Shown here: piece after piece, positions 8,966 to 32,640 of the stretch
How positions within the stretch are numbered: position 1 is the first letter of the stretch
Layout of the letters: every line of letters begins with the position of its first letter
NCBI GenBank assembly: GCA_026419785.1
Contig: JAODTK010003777.1
Span: 1-64,000 of the forward strand
DNA from: Sclerodactyla briareus
Taxonomy: Eukaryota > Echinodermata > Holothuroidea > Dendrochirotida > Sclerodactylidae
DNA length: 64,000 nucleotides
Reading direction: 5' to 3'
The notes under the pieces: model-generated
Told to the model about the DNA's origin: nothing
Seen by the model: only the letters and a program-made list of their open reading frames with translations
Database searches by the model: none
Program-made: the position numbers and the translations under genes

Positions 8966-9223
8966 TGCTCCTCCTTCACCCAGTCCCCAGGGACAGTGGG
9001 GGGACCTGTGGGGCCAACGTTGAGACTTCCCTGTGCTGCCCCGAAGGAGACCCACGCCTGTCATCACCTGGTCTAAGGAGGGGTCCAGACACAGGACAGC
9101 CAGAAGTTTACAACCTCTGAGCTCGGTCTATTGATCACTGACGGGGGCAAGGATGATGAGGGACGTTATCAGTGTGCAGCCAGAAATAGCATTGGCTACA
9201 TAGCTACACAAATGACTTGATGT
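8966..9223 (+). CDS. Peroxidasin exon: last Ig domain (Ig4)
   Basis: This exon encodes the Ig domain closest to the peroxidase domain. Read across frame changes it gives GANVRLPCAAEG (B strand with cysteine), PVITWSKEG (C strand with core tryptophan), KFTTSELGLLITDGG (D and E strands) and DDEGRYQCAARNSIGYIA (F strand, DxGxYxC, second cysteine). The order and wording closely match the fourth Ig domain of vertebrate peroxidasin. The acceptor is strong (tctcttttacag). The donor is not evident: the exon runs into a region where its own last 35-40 bases recur in variant form, each followed in better copies by gtgagt, so the 3' end is approximate. Frame changes occur near 9022 and 9040. Confidence 0.85.
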
Positions 9224-9600
9224 CTTTATAATGAAAGCATGATACCATGTGTTTTGCTACCTGCCTACAACACATTGAACTTGATGGATACACAGTGTTG
9301 GCCACATTGCTACGCACATGGAACTTGATGTCTTTAGTAATTAGTGTTGGATACATGGTGTTGGACACTTGCTACACCAAAACTTGATGGATCCACTTGT
9401 TGGCTACATTGCTACACACATGGAACTTGATGTCTTCAGTTAGTAGTGTTTGAATCCCGTGTTTGCTACTGTCCTACACCATAGACTTGATGGATACAAC
9501 ATGTGTAATTTTTGGCTACCATTGCGAACACATATAAACTTGACATCTGGTGAGGTATAGTATTGGCTACATTTCACACACTGTCACAACTTCCACGACA
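9190..9600 (+). repeat. Decayed repeats of the Ig4 exon tail
   Basis: Starting inside the exon end, the block attggctacattgctacaca-catggaacttgatgtct recurs at roughly 9190, 9290, 9395 and, more decayed, 9515. It alternates with a shorter related block ('cttgatggatacac'). The repeated block corresponds to the codons for IGYIATQ and the bases after them, so the units appear to derive from the exon 3' end. Units differ by substitutions as well as indels. Confidence 0.65.
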
Positions 9601-10257
9601 AACTACAATGGAGTTCTCAAGTTTTTAGTTGGCAACCTGGGTTTCCCTTTGGCCTATGTGGTTACCAGATAATTATGTTGAAATCTCAGGTAATTACCTG
9701 CAAGGGACATAAAATGACTAAGGTCTATTTGATGACTGACACATTTTAAAAATGGGCGTAATGTCACTGGTTTATTGGTATCCCCTGCCTTGTCAAAAGT
9801 GAAATTATCCGCTCGTTCTTCCGACTCAAGCCTTTGTTTTACCTAGAATGACTTCTTCCTGGTGAGAATTTCTGAATCCATGGATAATTCACACCTGGCA
9901 CAGTTATGGACGTTCCCTTTGGATAAGATAACAATCACACTGTTCCTTCTCCCGGTCCCCCCTCCTTCCTGGATTGAGATTTTAGCCCCCCAAAGATGTA
10001 TTCAAACTTCTCATTATTGAGAAAGCTTTTTGATCAGGAATTCGCTGCAATCACCCTGTCTCACTTGCCACATTCTGATTATCCAATTATTTGTAAAAAT
10101 CTGTTGCTCCATGAATGTCTAGAAAGTTTCTCTCCAATAATGAATGCATATTTAAAGATCTGATGAATTATTTTCAATTATCGAATAGCTCTGGAAAGTT
10201 TGCTCTTAACATAATGACCTATTATCCATTGAAGACCTTTTTACCGAAACCGTCAAT
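9601..10257. other. Intron, non-repetitive stretch
   Basis: This lies between the two blocks of exon-tail repeats. No exon, RNA or repeat family was recognised. Confidence 0.5.
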
Positions 10258-11085
10258 CCGTGACCACACATAGAACTGAATATCTGTTGCTGTATCATAG
10301 GCTACCTTGTTACACACAATAGGAACTGAATATCTGGTGAGTGTAAATCGTGCCTACAATTGTTACCAGACATCGAACTTAATATCTATTGAGTGTATCT
10401 TGACTACATGTTTACAGAAATGTGACTAAAATTATGAGTGTATATTGACCTACATTGTTACAAGACATGGAATTCAATATCTGGTATAATGGTATGCTTG
10501 GCCACTCGTAACATCCATGGAATTCTATCTATTGAGTTGTATCATTGACTACATTGTTTTACAGACAGGGACTCACTATCTAGTGAGTGTATCATTGACT
10601 ACATAGTTACAGACAATGGACTCAATATCTGGTAAATGTATCATTGGCCACATTGGCCACATCGTAACATACATGAATTCATATCTAGTGAGTGTATCAT
10701 TGATTACATTGTTACAGACATGGGACTCAATATCTAGTGAGTGTATCATTGAATACATTGTTACACTCATGGAACTCAATATCTAGTGAGTGTATCATTG
10801 ACTACATAGTTTCCACCATAGAACTGAAGATCTAGTGAGTGTATCATTGACTACATAGTTTTACACACATGGAACTCAATACTTGTGAGTGTACGTTATC
10901 TTACATTGTTATAGACATGGAACTCAATTGTGTATCATTGGCTACTTGGTTATAGACATGGAACTCACTATCTAGTGACTTAATAGCATTTGCCTACCTG
11001 TTGCACCCATGAACCTCAATATCTGGAGTGTGACATTGATCAACATTAAACTCCCAGTCTAAGTGAGTATGCATTGGCTAAATTG
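10258..11085 (+). repeat. About 49-bp minisatellite carrying splice-donor motifs
   Basis: About sixteen units of roughly 49 bp. The consensus runs tcattgactacattgttac, then agacatggaactcaatatct, then agtgagtgta. At least eight units contain gtgagtgta or gtgagtat, a near-perfect 5' splice-site sequence. The first two thirds resemble the Ig4 exon tail (attggctacatagctacaca, then aaatgacttgatgtct). The array therefore looks like amplified copies of the exon-intron junction, now inside the intron. The outer units are more diverged than the central ones (about 10560-10860). Confidence 0.75.
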
Positions 11086-11299
11086 ACATATAATCAGGTC
11101 TTAGCATAACTATGCAACACCAAAGGCATCCCCCCCAGTGTCGCCGCCTTGTTTACGCGATCATTGTTTACTTTCTATTAGCACCGGCAAACAATTACAA
11201 GGCATTCCATGTGTTGCTTGCAAAATTTTGGTAATATCATTTAACAGAAACAGCCTACTAATCAGTGACCAATTTTCAATTTGAAAGGACTGATTGATT

Positions 11300-11830
11300 G
11301 ACAAGTTGTATAATAAGAGTAAAAGTTTGTGGAGATGTGACTAAAATTGCCTAAAGTAGCAAATTAGGCAATTTACCAAGTTTCATCCGGCAAACTTGTA
11401 AATTATTCATAAATTATGCAAATTAGACACGTTGAATTACCTCAAGTGACCCTGAATCCATGATAAAATTTTACCATTTATATTATTAAAACCTTACCAC
11501 CAGTTTCAGGAAAATCAAGGGCAACTTGAAGATTTTGAATAATTATGCAAAGTAATAGCGCATGACCTCCTTTGACCCTGAATCTTTTTGAACAGTTTTG
11601 GGATGAAGGTAGACCCAATCACCAAGTAGTTCCATGAAAATCCGACTAACTTTTGAATTTCACATAAATTATGCAAATTAGATTACTTAATTACCATATT
11701 TTACGCTGAAAATATGAATCAGTTCATCTACCTTATATCCCACATCTATGTGCCAAACCAAGTTACCATAGCACCTACGTTTCATCGTAATCTTGCTAAC
11801 GAGCCTTAACAATAAATTACATAAAATAGG
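11300..11830. repeat. Dispersed repeat with 'aattatgcaaat' blocks
   Basis: Several modules pair a 'tttcatggaaatc'-like block with 'ataaattatgcaaattaga' and a 'gaccctgaatc' block, spaced roughly 120-170 bp. They are the reverse-orientation relatives of modules at 2.9-3.6 and 21.5-22.1 kb. Confidence 0.45.
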
Positions 11831-11967
11831 CTAATTACCTTACTGATTATTGACTTTTGTGCCAAAATCTAATCAGATAATGTTCACCCAACCCCGATGC
11901 TACTCTAGAAATTTTGTGGCAATTGCACTTACCATTTGAAAGATATCATGCACAGAGAAAGTGGACC

Positions 11968-12032
11968 ACCACACACACACGCACGCATACACACACACAA
12001 ACACACACGCCTACACACAACAAACACACACG
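11968..12032. repeat. CA-rich microsatellite
   Basis: An interrupted (CA)n tract with acgc and aaca interruptions, within the long intron. Confidence 0.85.
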
Positions 12033-13359
12033 CCATAGTGACCACTAAGTCTCCTCCTGAATTTCATTTAGGCGAGTCAATTATCATCATTGCTACATAC
12101 ATGGAACCCGGGGCTGTCAGTGTGGGCTATACAGCTCAAGTAAAAGGACAATTATAGTATTTGTTGTGTCAAATCAGGTGCACTGGCTACATTACCTGAC
12201 ATTATGTCTGTGTGTTATGTTGTATGCTCATATGTGGGCCAAACAGTCCTTGAAACTGACTAATCTGACAACCTAAAATGTCCTAATTGTGTATGTGACA
12301 AGTTGAATTGTAGGTCGCATAAAGGTGGGCATCTAACAAACGAATGAATTTGATGACCTAAAAATGGCACCAATATTTTCCAAAGAGCAAATCTGTTTAA
12401 ATGAAATGCACTTGACTGATTGCCCCATCGCTAGTGTTATAAGTCAATGCCTGGGTGGGCCTACTAGCACTGGGTTCTGGAAACTTTGTTGCCTTGGTTA
12501 CAAGAAAAAACACTTTGTATATCACCTTGAACTATGCTGGGTCGAATCCACTGCATATCACAAAAGCTTTTATGGAAGTTCAAGCTACTACTGAGATTAC
12601 CAATGATTACTTCAAAGCTGGCGTGTAGGTCATAAATACAACTGCAAATTATTTGCAGCTAAGTGGTGCAATGGGAAGACTGTGACTCTCACCTGAATGT
12701 TATTACTCTTGACACAGTGACAGCAAAGTTTGGCTTTGGAAATCTCCAGCTCTGATAAAATTCATTCCAGATGAATTTGCTCCATTGACCATTACTGTAT
12801 TGACTGCTCCACTCTATAAATATTTGGTACACCACTGCCTTACATGGAGACAACGTAGGATACATGGCTACCACATCGAACGTTGAACTCATTGGGGGTA
12901 TTAGCGTGGCGAATTGCATGATTCATGACAAATACATATGTCAATCATAGTTGTGTCTCCGTGAAAATTTGAGTTTGAATCTTTGCATAGGCTTAGCAGG
13001 CTACACTGTAACAGAGACAACTGCTACGCTGCATGGAATAGCTTGGATGCATAGGTGCAAACATGTTACTTATACCCACACTGAACCAACTCTCAACTCC
13101 TTCCACTAAGACCCTCCCCAGTCCTCCCACTCCTTTGTCCCCTCAACCACTCTCACCCGATTGCTCTCCACTCACTCACTCCCCCAAACCAACTCACCCA
13201 ATCACTCACTCAATGAAATTCATATACCCATAATGTCAACAATTGATTAAAAGACGTTAGTTGGAGTATGTTCAGAGGTAACAAGAAATTGCTGCATTCA
13301 AAATATAATTTAATTGATATTCTGGCAAACTTCAGCTTTTAAACACGATGACTCCACCC
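12033..13359. other. Intron, no gene recognised
   Basis: Open frames at 12364-12594 (+) and 12689-12919 (-) have no recognisable domain. A C-rich, low-complexity stretch (cactc/cccaa repeats) lies at 13080-13215. Confidence 0.5.
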
Positions 13360-13740
13360 CACCTAGATGGATGGATGTAGCTCATACTTGATATTTGTTT
13401 TCCCCAAGATGAGTATATCAGCCCCCACGAGTTTGGTCAGTTCAGAGGTCAAAAGAGGAACTTGAAAAATCCTTGTAACATTGCAGAATGCTTGGTCTGA
13501 TCAAGTTGAAATTCTGTGTGTAGTTTTCTCATCAAGAGTACAGAATATTTTGTCAAGATTGTGCTATTTTTTGTGAAACATTGGGGATTTGTGGAAAATA
13601 TCATATATTACCAGAAATTTTTACAGGCAATTTCCCCTTGGTCTTGTGTCTTGTCTGGACATACTTTATTAGAAACGAGTCAAGGAGTCACTGAGCCCTT
13701 TGGCTCTCTGGTTTTCAGATGAAATGCCTCTCTGGGGAGA
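13360..13740. repeat. Dispersed repeat family A, copy 1
   Basis: The order of blocks is gatggatgtagctcatactt, then tcagttcagaggtcaaa, then 'cttggtctgatcaagttgaaatt', then a tail ending 'gagccctttggctctctgg'. The same order recurs at 26.9-27.2 kb and, shorter, at 58.9-59.1 kb. It carries no coding capacity and is probably a non-autonomous transposable element. Confidence 0.55.
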
Positions 13741-13837
13741 GTCTGTTCTCAAAGAATGTTCCTTCTGACAATTGTCATGGGAATGTACATAGTCATAAAG
13801 TGTTATCACTATCACTCACACTGCATCATGCCTGTCC

Positions 13838-15371
13838 CTGTTCCAGTAATAATCATTCACTGCATTCATCCCTGTCCCTGTTCCAGTATAATCATTCAAC
13901 TGCATCATCCCTGTCCCTGTTCAGTAATAATCATTGAACTGCATTCATCCCTGTCCCTTTACAGTAATAATCATTCAACTGCATTCATCCTGTCCCTTTA
14001 CAGTAATAATCATTGAACTGCATTCATCCCTGTCCCTTTACAGTATAATCATTCAACTGCATTCATCCCTGTCCCTGTTCCAGTAATAATCATTCAACTG
14101 CATCATCCCTGTCCCTTTATCAGTAATAATCATTCAACTGCATTCATCCCTTGTCCATTTACAGTAATAATCATTGAACTGCATTCATCCTGTCCCTGTT
14201 CCAGTAATAATCATTCAACTGCATTCATCCCTGTCCCTTACAGTAATAATCATTCACTGCATTCATTCCCTGTCCCTTTACAGTAATAATCATCAACTGC
14301 ATTCATCCCCTGTCCTTTACAGTAATAAGCATTCAACTGCATTCATCCCTGTCCCTTTACAGTAAAATCATTCAACTGCATCATCCCTGTCCCTGTTCCA
14401 GTAATAATCATTCAACTGCATTCATCCCTGTCCCTGTTCCAGTAATAATCATTCACTGCATTCATCCCTGTCCCTTACAGTAATAATCATGAACTGCATC
14501 ATCCCTGTCCCTTTACAGTAATAATCATCAACTGCATTCATCCCGTCCCTTTACAGTAATAATCATTCAACTGCCATTCATCCCTGTCCCTTACAGTAAT
14601 AATCATTCAACTGCATTCATCCTGTCCCTTTACAGTAATAATCATTCAACTGCATTCATCCTGTCCCTTTACAGTATAATCATTCACTGCATTCATCCTG
14701 TCCCTTTACAGTAATAATCATTGAACTGCATTCATCCCCTGTCCTTTACAGTAATAATCATTCACTGCATTCATCCTGTCCCTGTTCCAGTAATAATCAT
14801 TCAACGCATTCATCCCTGTCCCTTACAGTAATAATCATTCAACTGCATTCATCCTGTCCCTTACAGTAATAATCATTGAACTGCATTCATCCTGTCCCTG
14901 TTCCAGTATAATCATTCACTGCATTCACCCCTGTCCCTTTACAGTAATAATCATCAACTGCATTCATCCCCTGTCCTTTACAGTAATAATCATTGAACTG
15001 CATTCATCCCTGTCCCTTTACAGTAATAATCATTCAATGCATTCATCCCTGTCCCTTTACAGTAATAATCATTGAACTGCATTCATCCTGTCCCTGTTCC
15101 AGTAATAATCATTCACTGCATTCACCCCTGTCCCTTTACAGTAATAATCATTCAACTGCATTCATCCCTGTCCCTTTCCAGTAATAATCATTGAACTGCA
15201 TTCATCCCTGTCCCTTTACAGTAATAATCATTGAACTGCATTCATCCCTGCCCCGTCCGTAATAATCATTCACTGCATTCATCCCGTCCCTTTACAGTAA
15301 TAATCATTCAACTGCATTCGTCCCTGTTCCAGTAATAATCATTCAACGCATTCATCCCTGTCCCTTTACAG
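13838..15371 (+). repeat. About 40-bp minisatellite of splice-acceptor copies
   Basis: About forty tandem units with consensus cattcaactgcattcatccc, then tgtccctttacagtaataat (40 bp). A second variant has ccctgttccag in place of ccctttacag. Every unit but one (near 15258) keeps a pyrimidine tract followed by CAG, a full 3' splice-acceptor signature. The last unit is the real acceptor of the exon at 15372: its CAG is followed by taatcgag instead of taataat. The array therefore grew out of the intron-exon junction. Units differ mostly by loss of one base from a doublet or triplet. Confidence 0.92.
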
Positions 15372-15637
15372 TAATCGAGAGTGAAGAGACCGAGGGCGTG
15401 GACGTGAATGCAACGATCATACGAGTGACAGAGGAGGTCAATAGCGTGATAAAACAATCTATTGACGCCTCTTCGACCGGAGCCGCCACACGACCCCCAA
15501 TGACCTCCTCACACTATTCAAGTTCCCCAATCCCGAGGTGGTTGGCGCTATACGTGCGGCCGAGATATTTGAACGCACCGTTGAGATGATCCACCGCGGA
15601 GTGCAAGAGGGACGTAGCGTTAATCTCACGGATGTAG
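15372..15637 (+). CDS. Peroxidasin exon: Ig4-peroxidase linker and start of peroxidase domain
   Basis: This exon carries the linker between the last Ig domain and the animal heme peroxidase domain, and the first helices of the latter. The first part reads VNATIIRVTEEVNSVIKQSI. After a frame change near 15490 (a run of five C) it continues PNDLLTLFKFPNPE and AAEIFERTVEMIHRGVQEG. 'PNDLLALFRYP' and 'EIFERTLQLIQEHVQ' are the corresponding vertebrate segments, so the assignment is firm. The acceptor is the last unit of the 40-bp array. The donor is strong (gatgtag|gtaagt). The exon begins with two bases that complete a split codon, as expected after a phase-1 Ig exon. Confidence 0.9.
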
Positions 15638-17081
15638 GTAAGTCAGTCTTTTGAACTCCTCTGTTCCTACCCTGGTACAGTTTTGGTGATAGTAAGGGAT
15701 AATGAAAGTAGATCTGAGAAGTTCCACATAGCGAGATTAGCAGCATTCTTGTGGAATGGATCATGGTATGTTGCCAGAATGAAATCAAATTCCAACCTAT
15801 GCAACGCCCTACCAGGGTGCTAACCTGGGTACTGCTCTGATTTCCAGTGGGACTTCCTCTTGGGTGGTACCTCAATGTGAAAGGTGTGGTAAGGGTAATC
15901 ACAGACTGGCTTGAAATGGACTTTCATACTCAGTCAGTGTTATCATGGCTTAGTAACCTTGGGGGTGTTCAGGGATACTTCCAACATTTAAGGGGCATAT
16001 AGAGCTATTATGTAGAAAATTGCAAAAGTCTGCAAAATTATTCTTCTCCTACAGTTCAGGCTGGACTACCATCCAACTTGGTCAGTGTTATCATGGACCA
16101 GTAGTACCTTGGTTGTTCAGGAATTTGAGGTCATTAAAGGTCATTGAGAGGGGCATTTATGGGAGACTCCTTCTACCAAAACTGTATAGCAAACAACTAG
16201 TTTTTTTCTTCTTTCCCTTTATATATAAACCCCAAACTGATGTAAAGCACATGTTCAAAGTGAGATAGCCAATCAGTACCAAATTGTATGCCTATGCACT
16301 AATAACAATGAATGGCCATAACATCATTCCACAGGTGAACAAAAACAGGTTCATCTCACTAAGCACTGCGATTGAACAAAATTACAAGTTTACAGGAATT
16401 CATTCAGTACAATACAACAGTTGTTGAAGGTCTCAGACAACAGCAGAGGGAATCCAGCTAGGAGTAGAATCGATTACGGGTATCTTCCATGCACTACCGC
16501 TCTCATATTAGTAATATATATATAGTATAATATTCAGTAAAACCTCGCTAAGGCGAATGATTTAGTCTAAAATCATTATGTTGCAATGAAAGAGAGAATA
16601 AGGGGAAAATTGGCCTTTCGATACATCATCTGCAATTGTCAAAAACATTGTTCATTGCGGACATAGCTAAAAGCTGGATAACACCATTTGCTGAGGAGGC
16701 CTTGCTTTGTTATGTTAGGCCTATTTCCTGCTTGTGAGTGCTCCATTTGCGAGGTTGACTGCTGGGTTTGCACATATGGGTTACATGTACGAGTATGATT
16801 CTTTTCGATCAATAGCGAGAAACACATTTTGACGGCGTTGACTTCTGCGATTTGTTCACACCTGTACTGTGAAATGGTACAGAGAATGGGCCCACAGACA
16901 CCGAAGTCACGTATCAACTAAAATACACGAGCAATAGTGAGAAACAACGACTGAGGCACATATTCTGTGTGGATCCTAAAATGATATACAATACTTTGCC
17001 CTATATCCCTTTGGCCCCCTCACCCTATACTTTCCTCCTCCCTGTTGAATTAGCGTTCATACCCTTATCTTCTGTTTGCAG
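15638..17081 (+). other. Intron within the peroxidase domain
   Basis: Runs from gtaagt to tgtttgcag. Apart from the short direct repeat at 15935-16115 and a small (TA)n tract near 16515, nothing recognisable was found. Confidence 0.65.
15935..16115. repeat. Direct repeat about 147 bp apart
   Basis: The block 'cagtgttatcatgg', then cttagtaaccttggggg or ccagtagtaccttgg, then tgttcagg appears at 15935 and again at about 16082. This suggests a diverged tandem duplication of about 147 bp. Confidence 0.5.
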
Positions 17082-18712
17082 ACTTTAAATCCACAATCTG
17101 TCACCACGTCTGTGAGTCTCATCGCAAACTACTCTGGGTGCTCCAACATGAAGAAGGATGTCGACTGCTCCGACATCTGCTTCCACAAGAGCTACCGGAC
17201 ATATGACGGCACATGCAACAACCTCCAGCACAAAAAGTGGGGGGCCTCGCTTACCCCCTTCAGCGGTTCTCCAAGCCTGTATACGAGAACGGACTGAGCA
17301 CGCCCGTGGGCTGGAACCGCACTAAGCTCTACCATGGCTACCCTAAGCCCAAGTCCGCGAGGTCTCCTCAAGATCCTGTCCACCGCCCACGTCACAGATC
17401 ATCCCGGTTACTCGCACATGGTGATGATGCAGTGGGGGCAGTTCCTGGACCACGACCATGACCTGGTGGTGGGTGGTCTCGGCAGGGCTCGGTTCGTCGA
17501 TGGGGTGGAGTGTAAGGACACCTGCGACAACGAGCCACCGTGCTTCCCCCTCCGGATACCCGATGATGATCCTAGAATACAGAGCCATCATTGCATGGAG
17601 TTCACCCGGTCTAGTGCTGTCTGTGGCAGCGGCAGCTCCTCTGCTTCTTTGACTTCATCATGCCCCGTGAGTCAATTAACTCACTGACATCCTACATTAT
17701 CCTCAACCTTCTACGGGAGCACCCGGTATTGGCTGAGATGCTGAGAGACACATCAAGTGACAGCTATGGCAAGCTGCGTGTCGGGCGGCAGGATGAGTCG
17801 GGCAAGCTTTCCTGCCCTTCAACGAAGACCTTCCCGATCGACTGTGACAGGGACAGGGACGAGAGCCCCATTCCATGCTTCCTTGCAGGGGACGTCCGGG
17901 CCAACGAGCAGGTGGGGCTGACTGCGATGCACACCCTCTGGTTGCGGGAACACAATCGCATCGCGGGCCCGCGTGCACATCATCAACCCTCACTGGAAGG
18001 ATGAGACCATCTATCAGGAAACGAGGAAGATTGTTGGAGCTGCCATCAGCATATCACCTACAAATTCTGGCTTCCTAAGGTCCTCGGTAGCCATGGGATG
18101 GAACTCCTCGGGGAATACAAGGGCTATGACCCAACCGTGGACAGTTCGATTGCGAACAGCTTTGCAACAGCAGCCTTCCGGTTTGGACATTCATTGATCC
18201 AGCCAGTGCTCCGTCGGCTCAACGAGTCTTTCAGACGGATGAAAATTATGGAGATTTACCTCTGCACCGGGCATTCTTCTCTCCATTCCGGTTGGTGGAT
18301 GAAGGTGGCATAGACCCGATTCTTCGAGGTCTCTATGCAGTGCCTCTGAAGCAGCCCGCCCCTGAAGAGATGATGAACTCAGAACTGACAGAACGCCTCT
18401 TCCACATGGCGCACACCATTGCCCTTGACTTAGGGGCGTTGAACAACACCGGGGGCGCGACCACGCCCTCCCTCCCTACAACGAGTGGCGGAGATTCTGT
18501 AACCTGCCAATCGCTAGCACCTTTGATGATCTGTCCGAGGAGATCAGAAATCCAGACGTCAGGGGGAAACTCCAAGAGGTTTATGGACACCCAGGAAACA
18601 TAGACCTCTTCGTTGGTGGCATGGCAGAGGAACCATCAGAAGACGGCTTGGTTGGCCCAACTTTCACCTGCATACTGGCTGAACAGTTCAGGAGGTTACG
18701 AGACGGAGACAG
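17082..18712 (+). CDS. Peroxidasin catalytic exon (animal heme peroxidase)
   Basis: One large exon encodes most of the heme peroxidase domain. Peroxidasin uses H2O2 and bromide to form sulfilimine cross-links in collagen IV of basement membranes. Landmarks in order: [34 protein letters not shown] with the heme-linked Asp and distal His (17448-17453), SSAVCGSG, a diverged calcium loop (TSYI.., FYGST) near 17685-17725, [24 protein letters not shown] with catalytic Arg and heme-linked Glu (17945-17950), [11 protein letters not shown] with the proximal His (18188-18190), [26 protein letters not shown] with the Asn partner (18442), [16 protein letters not shown], and [10 protein letters not shown]. 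All catalytic residues are kept. The reading frame nevertheless changes about ten times, for example near 17260, 17360, 17650, 17695, 17815, 17965, 18050, 18235 and 18450. Acceptor tgtttgcag, donor ag|gtgagc. Confidence 0.95.
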
Positions 18713-20650
18713 GTGAGCGTTGATAATGTGCAATAATGGGAGGAAATCCTCGTTTAAACCTTTTGTTTGGGAATCATGAGCATTCATCAGAATGCTGGGA
18801 TTCAATGACAGTACTCATATTCTTCATACCCTTTATTGGAGTTTTGTCTGCCTCAAGTGACAGTATTAGCCCACATCGGAACCCACTTCAAGGCTCTTCT
18901 GTTTTTGGGGTCTCAGATCTGGGGTCTATTACAATGTTGGAGCTTTCTGCTTGCTGGGGTCACAAAAGTAGCCCACAAGAGGTACACACTAGAATAGTAT
19001 ATACTTTTGTGGAGGTCAGGTCATATCATATATCATATAAGGTCATATCAGGTCAATAGAGGTCACAGTGCTTTACAATACTTGATGTGAAGTGCACTTT
19101 TCCCCCACGATTGTTCAATCAGACCCTGTTAGCTATTGGTACAAGAAAAACTGGCCATAGCTATTCAGTAGGGAGGAGGGCGGGGGTACTTACCGAACAT
19201 AAACTATTTGCTCATAATGAATTTAAATAAATAAAACATTAATACAATCCCAATGTATGCGAAAGAATAGCAGATTTCAAGCAAACATTCTGAGTTTGAA
19301 TTCCAGCAACCACTGGATGTTTTTACCAAGGTGGCTGTATTTGTTGGGATGGGCAAGGTCCAGGTCTTCACTTCATGGTTCCGCTGTAATGCAGTGGACT
19401 TTGTGGTTACTGGGGTTTGTTACAGAATATTTGCGATAAGTCCTGTTGGTCAGCTGTGGTAGTCACATTGAACCCTCCAGGTTCCAAGAAAGTAGTTGGG
19501 TCCTGGAGTTCAGTGAATGTCCTTTCGGACATAAAATGGCGGTCCCAGGAGCAGGTTAGAATTGGTAGCACCCATGCCTCGATATCACAGGTTTGATTAG
19601 CTTGTTGAATAGATGATTGAGCTTGTTAATCATACCATGGTAAGACCGAACAAGAGACAACCCAAATAAATAGGAAATGATCAATTAAAAGTTCAAGCAG
19701 TTAATTAATCTCGGTCATGGCTTTGTCTCTGTAATAACATCCTGTGATACAAAGCAGAATAGTTTGTTCTGACTGGGTGACAATCTTTTGACCATATCTA
19801 GCGTTAATGAAGCGGTTAGTTTGTGGTCAGGTGTTTGTTATATTGGCCGATATACCCCTTGATTGAGGAAGGGGTGTGTTTGTGGTCTGTTTTGGAATCG
19901 TATTGGTCTTAAGAGCACCTGGGAGTTCGAATTTTGAACTTGTACCTTATTGTCTAGAAAATCCTCAGTCATCATTGTGATGATTGTGTAGTAAGGCCAC
20001 AAGTTTCCCATAGAAAGGGTCAATAAATCCCATGTTAGTATTTGAGCTATCGTAACATTGAATATTCAGCATTTTCGCCATGATCCCGATTCCCCATATA
20101 TACAGGAATGATAGTGAGTCTTGTGTTTCATAACTATGATGTATTAAACCCAACTTATTATTCAACCCTTCACCAGTCCCAAGTGCATTCTAACACTTGT
20201 CTATATACAGTTAACAGTTGTTGGTTGCCCATACTGTACTTGCCACTGATAGGTCGTGGAGGTGGGGGGATGAGACAGGAGTTCACCCCCTATCTCACAG
20301 AATTGTAATATTAGCTAGGAAAAAACATGTTTTGTGAGGCCAATATAACTGACATAGTATTCAGTTACGTGACTTTCAGTTAACGCCCCCTGTGCAAACA
20401 TCCTCTCTGCCCCACCACAGCAAAGAAGAGATGGCATGATTTGAGGATCTGTCACAGAAATTTCTGCCGGGCAAAAGTGGTTTCACCCCCCAAATCACAA
20501 TGAGTTACACTTCTGGGTCAGTACAAGCGTGTTGTTGGCTCGTTACACGAAACACCGTTGGCTACCCTATCATCATTTTGCCATCTGTTGCCCCCTCCTT
20601 GTGAGTGTGTGCAGAGGTAGCTTTATACCTATTCCCGTCGTCACTTGCAG
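18713..20650 (+). other. Intron within the peroxidase domain
   Basis: Runs from gtgagc to acttgcag. It holds a cluster of ggtca motifs with 'atatcatat' at about 19010-19065. No gene or known element was recognised. Confidence 0.65.
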
Positions 20651-20859
20651 GTTTTGGTACGAGAATGATGGCGTTTTTGCTCCTGATCAGCTGACGCAGA
20701 TAAAACAGATCACCCTCTCGAGGGTCCTCTGTGACAACGGCGACACTATCAACAGAGTCAACGATGACCCCTTCGTGTTTATAGAGAACATCAATGACTA
20801 TAAGAAGTGTAGAGAGATACCGTCGGTGAATCTAGGAATGTGGACTGACTGTCTAGAAG
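20651..20859 (+). CDS. Peroxidasin exon: C-terminal end of peroxidase domain
   Basis: This exon completes the peroxidase domain. It has 69 uninterrupted codons between split codons at both ends. The first base completes the Arg of 'RDGDR' begun in the previous exon, giving WYENDGVFAPDQLTQIKQ, then LSRVLCDNGDTINRV, then KKCREIPSVNLGMWTDC. These match the 'WYENPGVFSPAQLTQIKQ', 'LCDNADNITRV' and 'IPRVDLRVWQDC' segments of vertebrate peroxidasin. Acceptor acttgcag, donor gaag|gtaagc. Unlike the preceding exons it has no frame change. The expected downstream linker and VWFC exons were not recognised within the following 43 kb. Confidence 0.95.
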
Positions 20860-27671: not shown

Positions 27672-29707
27672 GGGTATACATTTTTTCTTGTGTAGGACGT
27701 CCTGTAAACTATCACTGCCTCTGGTCACCATGGCTTTGCCTTGTATGAGACGTGCGGGCTCCCATTGTAGATGTTAGTCGGGTAGGCACGGCCCATTGAC
27801 CCGCCGGAGACTGGAGGTTGGGAGGAGCGAATAGTGATAAAGACTTCAGCATGCTGCAAGCTCCAAACAGTCTAGGAAGTTATGGGTCTTTGGTAACTTC
27901 ACATCAACACTATTTAGAGACTAGACCTTGCAAGGAAAATGTGCTTGAGATGTACCAAGAAGGAAAAAATTGAGGGGATCCTAATTTTATCTTTTACTAA
28001 TACTACTTCAACTAGTGTGAAAATTCCTATCCTGCACAACCACGGGAAGGGAACAGCAAGGTGTGATTCACATTCTTTGAGACGTCGGCTATTGTCAGAT
28101 GGGGGACACTACATGCCTAAGATGGTCAAGTATTGAAGTGGCACCATGTTGGATCTTATGCTGCAGCAGATCAGGCTATTACTTGATGACACAATGATGA
28201 ACACGACAAGCACATCTCAGTGTCATTCATAATAGTATTACATTGGCTTTCAAACATGGTGTGGCTCTACCAGGCTATGACTTCTGTCGTGGTGCCTAAA
28301 GAGACACGATCGAGGGAACAATGAGTGGACGATGAATTGGTTTAGATAACCCTGCTATCTCACCACCCCATAGGTCACATGATGTAAACACAACAATGAC
28401 TGGTATTATGCCCAGTCCACCCAACAAATTTGGTCAAGGTAAATATTGAGGCTTCGGGGAGTGGGGAGTGAATGCCATTAACGTATGAATACAGTACACT
28501 AGTTTCACAAACGGGTTAAAACCCTTATGTGACTCGAATTAAAGAGAATAAAAATTAGAAGAGAAATTGAGTAGCTATATTATATATGATAAAACTGAGT
28601 GAACAACGAAGGAGGGACGGGCAATTTAATAATGGAGTGATTCCATTGGAAGCTAATAGGTTCTTCTATAATTGTCATAAGAAACAAAACAAAAGCCGAA
28701 CCAGTCTTTTGATTCCCCTAGAAAAATTGCATATTAGCTTGATTTTTTCTGGGTGACTGCCTTCAGACCAGTCTCACTATATGGTACATCTCTACATTAA
28801 TGGTGTGCTGGAGACTTACAATTACAGGGCATATTTAGTGCCACCTCTTGGCTCCCAATTAGCAGTTAATAGGATGGGCATTATAACAGCTGGACAAAAG
28901 AAACTTTTCTGCCTCAGCCAGCTGTCTTCCGCCAATGTGCACGGCTTAGAAGTGTATTTATGGTATTGATTCTACCAAGATATTCTTGGTAGCGATGGGC
29001 AGTTGCGAAATGGGTAGTATAACCAGAGCCTTAGCGAATACACATTGACCCCTGTCGTGGGGCTATATAGTGCTACCATTTCAGTGAAGATGAACTTCAA
29101 ACTAAATGATTGTGATGTGGAATGGCCGGGCAGCAAACCAGATCGTAACAAGTCATGCCAGAAATTGTGGTTGGTAAATTCTATTTTGTTTTTTCCCAAG
29201 TTTTCTTGGCAGTGTAGAATTAGACATGGAGGTGCTGTTTTCAGATTAAATTGTTATGTGGTTTTTCTGTGTACTGCTTTTTCACTATTGTCATTTCTTA
29301 TTCCCAATTTTTTTTTAAATTGTTTTCAAATTGTCGATGAGGAGAAGTAATTTATTTGTTGAGCCATCAGTCACTATTTTAGGTTGTTATGGGAAGGGAA
29401 ACTTTGTAGCAAAAAACATCTCATATTTGGTTTACTTTTTTCCTTTTGTCAAACAAGTCATGTAAATATGAACTAATATGCAATATTAGGTAGCCTCCTA
29501 AGTTTTTATTTATGATATAATAAACTAAAAAAAGTCCATTCTCCACAATAAATATGAATGAAAAAAATTGTCATGTTGTACAGAATCTGCTATGCTTCAC
29601 ATTTTAAAGTTACTTTTGTTTTTAGAAATTTTAGTGTGATGTTTTGAAGCAAGGTTCAAGAGTCCATGGTTGGAGCCCCAACCCCAATAGGTGTGGATAC
29701 ATTGAAT
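27672..29707. other. No gene recognised
   Basis: AT-rich sequence without recognisable exons, RNAs or known repeat families. Short open frames look random. Confidence 0.45.
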
Positions 29708-30042
29708 GAGTTGGAGACACCAGGCCCTCTAGAGCTAGTGTGTGTTACATTGAAATGGTTGAAGCACCAGGCCCTTTAGAGCTAGTGTGTGTTACATTGA
29801 AATGGTTGAAGCACCAGGCCCTTTAGAGCTAGTGTGTGTTACATTGAAATGGTTGAAGCACCAGGCCCTTTAGAGCTAGTGTGTGTTACATTGAAATGGT
29901 TGAAGCACCAGGCCCTTTAGAGCTAGTGTGTGTTACATTGAAATGGTTGAAGCACCAGGCCCTTTAGAGCTAGTGTGTGTTACATTGAAATGGTTCGAGC
30001 ACCAGGGGCTTCAGAGCTACTAGAGCGTGTTACATTGGAATG
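29708..30042. repeat. 47-bp tandem array with five identical units
   Basis: Five perfectly identical 47-bp units occupy 29758-29992. The unit begins gttgaagcaccaggcccttt and ends gtgtgttacattgaaatg. A diverged unit flanks each side (29708-29757 and about 29993-30042). Perfect identity inside, with divergence only at the edges, indicates recent expansion or homogenisation. Confidence 0.97.
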
Positions 30043-32640
30043 TTTGGAGGGCTTCAGAAACTAGTGGCGCACATTGACGAATTTTAATAAGCCACTTCAT
30101 TAGGGATAGGCCAGTTTGTGGCTTCAAGGAGTACAACTCATTCGAGGCAAACAGGGTGTTGTGAATGAAATAATGCCATGTGCTGAAGTTGTAATGGCAA
30201 TGGGGAAAAATACCCAATGACCAATTATTGCTGTCTGACCCCCACTCATCCATTTCACAAGGGGAGATGAATGGTGTGACTGTGAGGTATATTTTTTTTA
30301 ATTTAGCTATGATGAGTGCAATGGCATGCAACCACCTCTTAGCAGAGACACAATGACAGGGCATGTGCGTGGTTGACACTAGTGTAGGAATATGACAGCC
30401 AGGAACGCAATGAATTGACACACTAAAAATTGTGGTCAGGAGTGCATGGCAAGAAGTTCTTACTATAAAGTAAGTTTGCCAATTCTCTGCTGATCAGAGG
30501 TTCGTGGTTATGTCCCAAAGCAATATGAAAACCATGTTTTGGTGATAAATCTCATTATTCCAAGTCTTGGAACTATAATCTCTATCAGATGGTCTTTTCC
30601 CCTGTCTCTCTCAAAACTGATTATTGAAAACGTTTGACTGATTAATCTAGTATACCCTGGAGTACAGTCTTATTGTTGACAAGAAATTACTTGAAATCTT
30701 ATGTGTGGCTGTCGTGTAGATGGATGCCAGTGAATTGTATGAAATTATTAGAAAAATGATTTTTGAAACAATCGGAGAATGAAGATTCTAAAACCACTGA
30801 TGCAAAAAAAAACACTGTCTATAAAGTGTGCATGGGGGAGAGGGGGGACTGGTTCAGGCCAGGAATAAACAGTGGGTTCATTTTAATGTATGCCATGTTG
30901 ACGAGAATAATGTGATACGTCCAGATAAGTCAGCGTTTATTCTTTTCAGTCACATAGTGAATAGCCGGATTGGTATAGACATATACAAACATGGCTTCGT
31001 TGAACATGATTTTGAAGGGTGGGTGGGTCCAATTTCAATCAATGAGGTTTGCATTGAGGACAGAAAACCTTAGTTGACGGCTCACAAATGAAGAAGTAAA
31101 TATAAATAGCGATTTATACAAATAAGCTACAGATGCTTATCGAATAGTAGTTCAGTCTTCGCAACCATAGGGCGGAATATTCTGAACTAATGCACAATTA
31201 TAAAAAGTGATCGGGCACGGGCTGGTGTGAAGGATCAACAAACATATCATAATTAAGTCAGCAGACCAACAACACTGAACACTTGTTTCAAAGTTCAGCT
31301 AACGTAATTTAATCAATCAGTTATTCGATTGATTACTTGTTTATTTAATTAATCAATCGAATAATTAATTTAATTGGAGGAGCATATGAATTGGAAACAA
31401 TGGTATGCTTAACCTTCCAAATAGTAACCTTAACAAAGTGATTATGGAACTAGGTCCACTATAGGAGTGTCTGTATGTCAGTGATATAGATCCGACTGCA
31501 GTCAGAGTAACTCTGGTGGTTAAATTGCAGTATTGTATAAAACATGTATTTTCTCAACAAGCAATTTCAGGCATTTGGCTCACTCACAGATGATTGCAAA
31601 TTTATTAATTAACACGTATGGGATATATTCTTTATTCCAGGTGTTTATTGGAGGTTGTGTAGCGTTCACTTCAAACCATGAGCTGATTAGGTAACGTTTA
31701 TAAGGCACTAATTTAATCACACGTGAACAATGTCATCGTCCTATATTGGCATATTGAAGAACTCTCCATGTGAAGGCAAGATACTGATTACTTGTGAGGA
31801 AACAGGTTCTGTTGTATGGAATTTTTTCTCTGTGTCAATAACATTCTAGTGTCAATTACTAGATGCATGAATCACCGCACTATTAACAATAACCACGTGA
31901 GTAATAATTTGGGCCATATATATACCACTTCTTTAACACGCCACTTCCATCCTTCTTTTCGCCATTCATATCAGATTTTTTTAATTGATTCACATGTACA
32001 CTACAATTAACCATTAAATAGATGTGTTTCATTATTCAAAGGTGAAAGGGTAGGTTTTAATCTTTTCAATTAGTCAATAGGTAGCCACTTCCCGAGACCA
32101 GTTTAAATTTCTTTATTTTTTTTATATTCCCCATTTTTATTACTGTATTTGTAATTTTCGTTGTATTTTCCCATGTATTATTGTCATTATTTAAGAGATA
32201 TTTTCGTACCGTAATTTCTTAGTGACTTTCACTCTTGTAAAATTGATTAACTAGCAAGAGCTGCTGCCATCAGAGTGACAGGTACAAAGGAGTTGACAAT
32301 GAATTGTCTTGCTTTCTGTCGAAATCTGGCAGGCTGTGAGACTATGCATAACATTTTTTTCTTTACTTTCACTTTTTATTTGTCCAGTATGGGATGATAA
32401 TCTTCATCAGGCAAGCTATCGGGATTGTTAAGCAAAATATTTAGGATTTGTTCCACCAACTGAAATCCTGATGAATAAATCATGAGTGTGTTTTAAATGA
32501 AGAATATGTCTTGGTTTCTTTTCTTCAGATTAAAAATGACTTGGATGAGGATTAGTAATATGGAATATTGTATTGAAAACCTAGCCCTCTGGTTCCAGTC
32601 ATAAGTTGCTGTTAGATGCCTATAGTGAGGAGGTGTGGAA
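30043..32640. other. No gene recognised
   Basis: Includes a 133-codon - strand frame (30020-30421) with no recognisable domain, and the small hairpin at 31321-31364. Otherwise AT-rich unassigned sequence. Confidence 0.45.
31321..31364. repeat. Perfect 15-bp inverted repeat (hairpin)
   Basis: ttattcgattgatta at 31321-31335 is exactly complementary to taatcaatcgaataa at 31350-31364, with a 14-base spacer. Flanks are also rich in aatcaat motifs. Confidence 0.9.

What the first reader, a model, noticed from the sequence alone, without database searches (positions are those of the whole stretch)
8966..15637. Both splice junctions of one intron independently amplified into arrays
One intron begins with an array derived from its exon-donor junction and ends with an array derived from its acceptor-exon junction. 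The two units have different lengths (about 49 and 40 bp) and different sequence, so they arose separately. Two independent events at the two ends of one intron suggest a shared cause, such as R-loop or replication stalling at junctions, or selection for multi-site splicing. I know of no described system of this form, but I could not search.
Basis: inference. Interest (0 to 1): 0.8.

Follow-up and report, generated by a model that had tools for sequence, protein, structure and literature searches.

The report
Intron with tandem-copied splice-site ends
One intron of a peroxidasin-like animal gene carries a tandem repeat at each end, one built from the end of the preceding exon and its splice site and one from the splice site of the next exon; such splice-site repeats ('mirages') are already described in amphioxus, and here they look like independent accidents of different age.

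Summary
Two different arrays sit at the two ends of one 6.1-kb intron of a peroxidasin-like gene. The donor-side array (9187-9583 and 10260-11085; 23 full ~49-bp units) contains the end of the Ig exon plus the donor: 0 of 5,887 random segments match its unit as well as the exon end does. The acceptor-side array (13806-15371; about 40 units of ~40 bp) is a repeated polypyrimidine-CAG site that supplies the acceptor but shares only 4-5 nt with the exon. Neither was found elsewhere in the genome. A shared cause is not supported: unit divergence is 3% against 15-20%; donor and acceptor triplets are not commoner genome-wide than backward controls; three other donor-junction arrays have no partner at the next acceptor as I judged it. 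Donor-junction arrays do recur: two clear and two probable among six other loci read. This is what is called 'mirages' in amphioxus (Adh3, globin, PGBD5), so 'no described system' is wrong. Most likely they are slippage-born minisatellites that survive at exon edges because extra copies are spliced away. The organism is unidentified and the assembly seems indel-rich.

The parts
8966..9226 (+). Ig-domain exon of a peroxidasin-like gene, donor-side exon (3' end approximate; frameshifts inside)
   Evidence: tblastn 8975-9214 E 5.5e-8; Pfam I-set E 1e-4 (22.7 bits, below its 23.7 cut-off) for 9077-9217; acceptor ttctcttttacag read directly
9187..9583 (+). Array 1a: 7 full degenerate ~49-bp units and two partial ones, the first being the exon end itself
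   Evidence: wraparound alignment; 19.8% substitutions between the 7 units, random baseline 31.7%
10260..11085 (+). Array 1b: 16 full units of ~49 bp and two partial ones, each exon end + donor + ~14 nt of intron; GTGAGT intact in 8 of 16 (counted by eye)
   Evidence: TRF 10291-10928; units and column conservation; all 4 genome matches lie in this array
12070..13059 (+). Possible isolated relics of the array-1 unit (12070, 12850, 13000)
   Evidence: scores 35, 29, 31: at or above the 99% point (29), none above the 99.9% point (35) of 4,000 random segments
13806..15371 (+). Array 2: about 40 units of ~40 bp, pyrimidine-rich and nearly all ending in CAG; the last unit supplies the acceptor
   Evidence: TRF 13811-15375; 38 of 39 cut units end in CAG; all 10 genome matches lie in this array
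15372..15637 (+). Linker exon between Ig and peroxidase domains, acceptor-side exon, followed by donor GTAAGT at 15638
   Evidence: tblastn 15469-15678 E 1.9e-8; sequence read
17112..20858 (+). Stretch with the animal haem peroxidase coding matches of the same gene
   Evidence: tblastn 17112-18713 and 20649-20858, best E 3e-98; PDB peroxidase matches; Pfam PF03098

Best explanation
Both arrays are intronic minisatellites of the kind called 'mirages': a short tandem duplication across or beside a splice junction, seeded by a few matching bases (CATTG stands both in the exon end and at the unit boundary of array 1), expanded by slippage or unequal exchange. They are found at exon edges because copies that fall on the intron side are spliced away and tolerated, while copies that stay in the exon would shift the frame; no junction-specific engine is needed. 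The spliceosome presumably uses an outermost donor and the exon-adjacent last CAG, leaving the repeats as ballast that lengthens the intron (about 2.8 of 6.1 kb here). The two arrays arose at different times. Shown: anatomy, exon-end homology of array 1, difference in divergence, no copies found elsewhere, donor-junction arrays in other genes. Inferred: slippage as the cause, neutrality, relative age, which sites are spliced.
For: Exon-end homology of array 1 (0 of 5,887 random segments). Divergence 3% against 15-20%. No copies found elsewhere. No excess conservation of GT in array 1b. Same anatomy in other genes: C2492, TRF 24 copies, exon end 0 of 2,976 random segments; C2839, an EGF exon (Pfam E 3.8e-9) whose donor is followed within ~20 bp by 16 copies of 32 bp, exon end 4 of 2,976; probable C3091 and C2285. 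Literature: exon-boundary duplications at 5' and 3' boundaries in amphioxus genes, differing in copy number between haplotypes or assemblies and said not to disturb splicing (PMC3087553, abstract and passages; PMC3902484, passages).
Against: Two arrays at one intron is a notable coincidence if each is rare. Array 2 has almost no exon sequence, so 'junction duplication' is weak there. The exon's own donor is not visible in this assembly, and the exon copy differs from the other array-1 units by about 23% substitutions, not far from the 31.7% random baseline of that aligner. No RNA data and no second haplotype. Donor motifs are not enriched in arrays genome-wide by match counts, though those count matches, not arrays.
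Confidence: 0.72

Rival explanations
1. Junction-linked instability: a shared process (R-loops, stalled forks or splicing-coupled breaks at exon edges) actively makes arrays at both ends of introns.
For: Donor-junction arrays recur in two other genes (C2492, C2839) and probably two more, out of six other loci read. On the same contig a 24-bp pyrimidine-rich array ends about 37 bp before what looks like the acceptor of an EGF-containing exon.
Against: Donor and acceptor triplets are not commoner than their backward controls genome-wide. Three other donor-junction arrays have no acceptor partner at the next acceptor as judged by eye. The two arrays differ about five-fold in substitution divergence.
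Confidence: 0.13
2. Selected multi-site splicing: the many GT and CAG copies are kept because alternative use of them matters.
For: 38 of 39 array-2 units end in CAG after a pyrimidine-rich stretch; array 2's acceptor score is reached by about 1% of its shuffles. [quoted passage not shown]
Against: Array 2 is uniform, so intact CAGs need no selection; GT in array 1b decays like the rest of the unit; the best donor scores of arrays 1a and 1b are not exceptional against shuffles (p 0.70 and 0.15); many shifts would break the frame (inference).
Confidence: 0.07
3. Ordinary intronic minisatellites that happen to lie at the two ends; the exon resemblance of array 1 is secondary.
For: Array 2 shares only 4-5 nt with the exon. 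Of 22 arrays tested in 264 kb only 3 (array 2 among them) have a donor or acceptor score with p <= 0.01, and the other two did not look like junction arrays on inspection.
Against: Array 1 continues exon coding sequence, and other genes show the same.
Confidence: 0.08

Closest known systems
'Mirages' of amphioxus (Adh3, globin BflGb6 and BflGb9, TnC, PGBD5)
   Same: Tandem repeats of tens of bp or more spanning or touching an exon-intron boundary, 5' or 3', many units keeping AG/GT signals (PMC3087553 and PMC3902484, abstract and passages seen)
   Different: Here donor-side and acceptor-side arrays lie in one intron, with about 23 and 40 units; the acceptor-side units hold almost no exon. I saw no statement of both ends of one intron in the passages read; the original 2002 Adh paper is not held. 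The species here is unidentified.
[quoted passage not shown] gene IFI6, recalled)
   Same: By its title, a minisatellite whose units give donor sites
   Different: Only the title was seen, in the reference list of PMC2572611; nothing else of it was read. No acceptor-side array is known to me there.
Internal tandem repeats at exon-intron boundaries of human segmental-duplication paralogs (PMC2812944)
   Same: Tandem repeats at exon-intron boundaries that alter intron structure (passages, abstract among them)
   Different: Variable repeats in recent paralogs with transcript evidence; no transcript data here
Intron gain by tandem duplication of splice-site-bearing sequence
   Same: Duplication carrying splice sites next to an exon
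   Different: Here an existing intron is enlarged; no new intron is shown (titles and abstract starts in a listing only; the model passage in PMC3087553)

Membership tests
Mirages (exon-intron boundary minisatellites) | Tandem units span an exon-intron boundary | tested here: met
   Donor side: exon-end score 36, 0 of 5,887 random segments reach it; the exon's own GT is not seen in this assembly
Mirages (exon-intron boundary minisatellites) | Acceptor-side units include exon sequence | tested here: inconclusive
   Only TAAT(C), 4-5 nt; the exon start is not otherwise similar to the unit
Mirages (exon-intron boundary minisatellites) | Unit length in the reported range (10-72 bp Adh3, 150-160 bp globin) and many units keeping AG or GT | tested here: met
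   49 and 40 bp; 38 of 39 CAG; GT columns 0.73 and 0.93 of 15 units
Mirages (exon-intron boundary minisatellites) | Splicing undisturbed; copy number varies between haplotypes | not testable with these tools
   No RNA and no second haplotype
Mirages (exon-intron boundary minisatellites) | Host is a cephalochordate | tested here: inconclusive
   No match for an amphioxus-derived fluorescent protein or amphioxus SCP, but the tool warns that an empty answer shows nothing; COX1 not found either
Dispersed repeat or introner-like element | Copies elsewhere in the genome | tested here: not met
   Each array's query matched only its own array on C2321; the search skips very common words
Intron gain by tandem duplication | The intron is new at this position | not tested

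The most novel reading that the evidence does not exclude
In this animal, possibly outside the cephalochordates, exon edges are recurrent birthplaces of minisatellites, donor edges above all, so introns grow outward from their splice sites; this intron records two rounds, an old one at the donor and a recent one at the acceptor.
Probability: 0.25. Interest if true: 0.55.

Novelty: new member of a known kind. Interest (0 to 1): 0.33.

Why it matters
It gives a clear case, with both intron ends involved, of splice sites being copied tens of times in a gene whose exons remain recognisable, and shows that donor-junction arrays recur in one genome. That makes two questions testable: how the spliceosome picks one donor and one acceptor among dozens of near-identical ones, and whether exon edges breed repeats or merely tolerate them on the intron side.

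Tried and rejected
Tried: copies of either array elsewhere (none found). Shared ancestry of the two arrays (not supported). Genome-wide enrichment of donor or acceptor motifs in arrays (not seen: 7 against 8, 38 against 89, 11 against 10). Limits: these are counts of matches, not of arrays; the donor pattern does not hit array 1 itself; the control's places could not be listed because searches did not complete. Splice-site scores of 22 arrays (period 20-250, at least 150 bp) in 264 kb against 200 shuffles each, using recalled human-like weight matrices: 3 of 22 with p <= 0.01 for donor or acceptor; arrays 1a and 1b are not among them. Of the two besides array 2, one lies on the strand opposite to a neighbouring exon-like ORF and the other near no exon that I recognised (by eye). 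Pfam scan of ORFs of 38 aa or more flanking 16 of 18 further arrays (149 of 166 listed ORFs; the 17 dropped belong to the two other window arrays; ORFs crossing locus borders were left out beforehand): hits to 12 families in one member each, several EGF-type, which I assign to one EGF ORF from its cysteines, and weak hits to unrelated families. Organism identification by two amphioxus proteins and COX1 gave nothing; a bantam microRNA test did not complete. Papers: one search found none; some searches gave partial precedents; the 2002 Adh paper is not held. Array C1986 (L016, L023) starts about 50 bp inside an intron but does not contain that exon's end (1,487 of 2,976 random segments reach its score), so I did not count it; C1626 (L047) has donor-like units but no exon that I recognised in the stretch read, so it is undecided.
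Full report
What is there. The window is C2321:1-64000 of a 319-Mb eukaryote assembly in 3,171 contigs. The gene is peroxidasin-like: recalled human peroxidasin aligns by tblastn to 8975-9214 (Ig domain), 15469-15678 (linker), 17112-18713 and 20649-20858 (peroxidase); Pfam and PDB searches agree for the peroxidase part, and a weak I-set match for the Ig exon. Exons contain frameshifts, which suggests indel-rich sequence, so single-base gaps in the repeats should not be over-read.

Donor side. Wraparound alignment gives 7 full and two partial units at 9187-9583 and 16 full and two partial units at 10260-11085, consensus GGCTACATTGTTACAGACATGGAACTCAATATCTGGTGAGTGTATCATT, with about 675 bp in between where no units are detected. 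A consensus from the distal part alone matches the last 42 nt or so of the Ig exon better than any of 5,887 random segments (36; their maximum 34); with the junction included, 2 of 6,000 reach it. Unit strings picked by hand and read in the exon frame give GYIATHMELDV-like peptides. So the unit is exon end plus donor plus a little intron. The bases CATTG stand both in the exon and at the unit boundary, as a microhomology-seeded duplication would leave (read; inference). The exon's own junction in this assembly lacks GT; a neighbouring unit has TTTAGTAATT at that place, so either a base was missed or an inner copy is used. Not resolved.

Acceptor side. From 13806 to 15371 stand about 40 units of ~40 bp, most ending CCCTTTACAG or CCTGTTCCAG; 38 of 39 cut units end in CAG. 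The last CAG is the acceptor of the linker exon, which starts TAATCGAG. The exon start beyond TAAT(C) is not in the unit (4,096 of 5,917 random segments score as high). This is an array of acceptor sites rather than of acceptor-exon junctions.

Independence and age. The two units are unrelated. Mean pairwise substitutions are 3.2% within array 2 (39 units), 14.9% within array 1b (16 units) and 19.8% within array 1a (7 units), with gaps of 7%, 17% and 23% and a random baseline of 31.7% substitutions. One looks old, one young: independent and not simultaneous, if both turn over at similar rates.

Genome-wide. Queries from each array matched only that array (the tool skips very common words). Three spaced strict donors: 7 matches against 8 for the backward control. 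Looser donors: 38 against 89. Three spaced acceptors CTTTNCAG: 11 against 10, and 7 of the 11 are array 2 itself. So these splice motifs are not over-represented in arrays by this count, and acceptor arrays of this form are rare. The counts are of matches, not arrays; the control's places could not be listed; and the donor pattern misses array 1 itself, whose donors are mostly preceded by CT rather than AG. None of the five contigs with an acceptor match is among the 15 with a donor match.

Other donor arrays. C2492: exon end in the unit, 0 of 2,976 random segments as similar; the exon is called from its open frame and splice sites, with no Pfam or convincing PDB match. C2839: an EGF exon (Pfam E 3.8e-9), exon end 4 of 2,976, intron side 161 of 2,976, the array starting about 20 bp past the donor. 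C3091: the unit clearly continues the sequence before the first donor (0 of 2,976), but that stretch is not proven to be an exon. C2285: the array starts at the donor, intron side only (0 of 2,976 for the intron side, 1,560 for the exon side; the exon is called by eye, no Pfam match). C1986: near a donor but unrelated to that exon. C1626: undecided. Thus two clear and two probable of six. For C2839, C3091 and C2285 the next acceptor, judged by eye, has no array (TRF shows otherwise only a 23-bp, 2.1-copy repeat in C3091); in C2492 no further array lies in the 5.2 kb downstream that I held.

Function. GT columns of array 1b are kept in 0.73 and 0.93 of 15 units against a unit mean of 0.84, and the donor scores of arrays 1a and 1b are not exceptional against shuffles (p 0.70 and 0.15): no sign of selection for the site. 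Array 2 is too uniform to tell. The simplest account is minisatellite birth by slippage plus a survival filter: copies on the intron side of an exon edge are removed by splicing.

Known or new. PMC3087553 (abstract and passages) describes minisatellite-like duplications of intron-exon boundaries in amphioxus globin genes, notes that both 5' and 3' boundaries can be affected, cites Adh3 with units of 10-72 bp and somatic instability, and says the data suggest that splicing is not disturbed. PMC3902484 (passages) adds PGBD5, with 60- and 108-bp repeats at splice sites. So the kind is known. What I did not see in those passages is both ends of one intron, an acceptor array of about 40 units, or a host other than amphioxus; that this genome is not amphioxus rests on weak evidence. 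In the searches run (listings only, except the papers named above) I saw no report of both ends of one intron, but the 2002 Adh paper is not held.

Noticed in passing
G000:C1626:21553-29641 (L047 covers 28300-30400): Arrays of ~36-bp units with GGTGAGT, matched at three places over 8 kb, perhaps one long array; its start and any exon were not read.
   Followed up: partly
L028:9941 to L029:533 and L029:1725-2186: Nearly the same 24-bp pyrimidine-rich unit forms one array ending about 37 bp before the apparent acceptor of an EGF-containing exon and a second array in the stretch after that exon.
   Followed up: partly
L023:4489-4956 (C1986): A 39-bp array with CAGGTAAGT in many units, starting about 50 bp inside an intron without resembling that exon's end.
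   Followed up: partly
L024:1-60, C806:207611, C2843:149215: GAGTCCGAGTCC-type repeats recur on several contigs and account for some of the genome-wide donor-pattern matches.
   Followed up: no
window 29691-30019: A 47-bp array, 7 copies at 95% matches, with no splice-site signal above shuffles.
   Followed up: no
G000:C2876:382122-382200: Outside this window, the one acceptor-pattern match that looks like a uniform array (unit ~35 bp with CTTTGCAG); not read.
   Followed up: no
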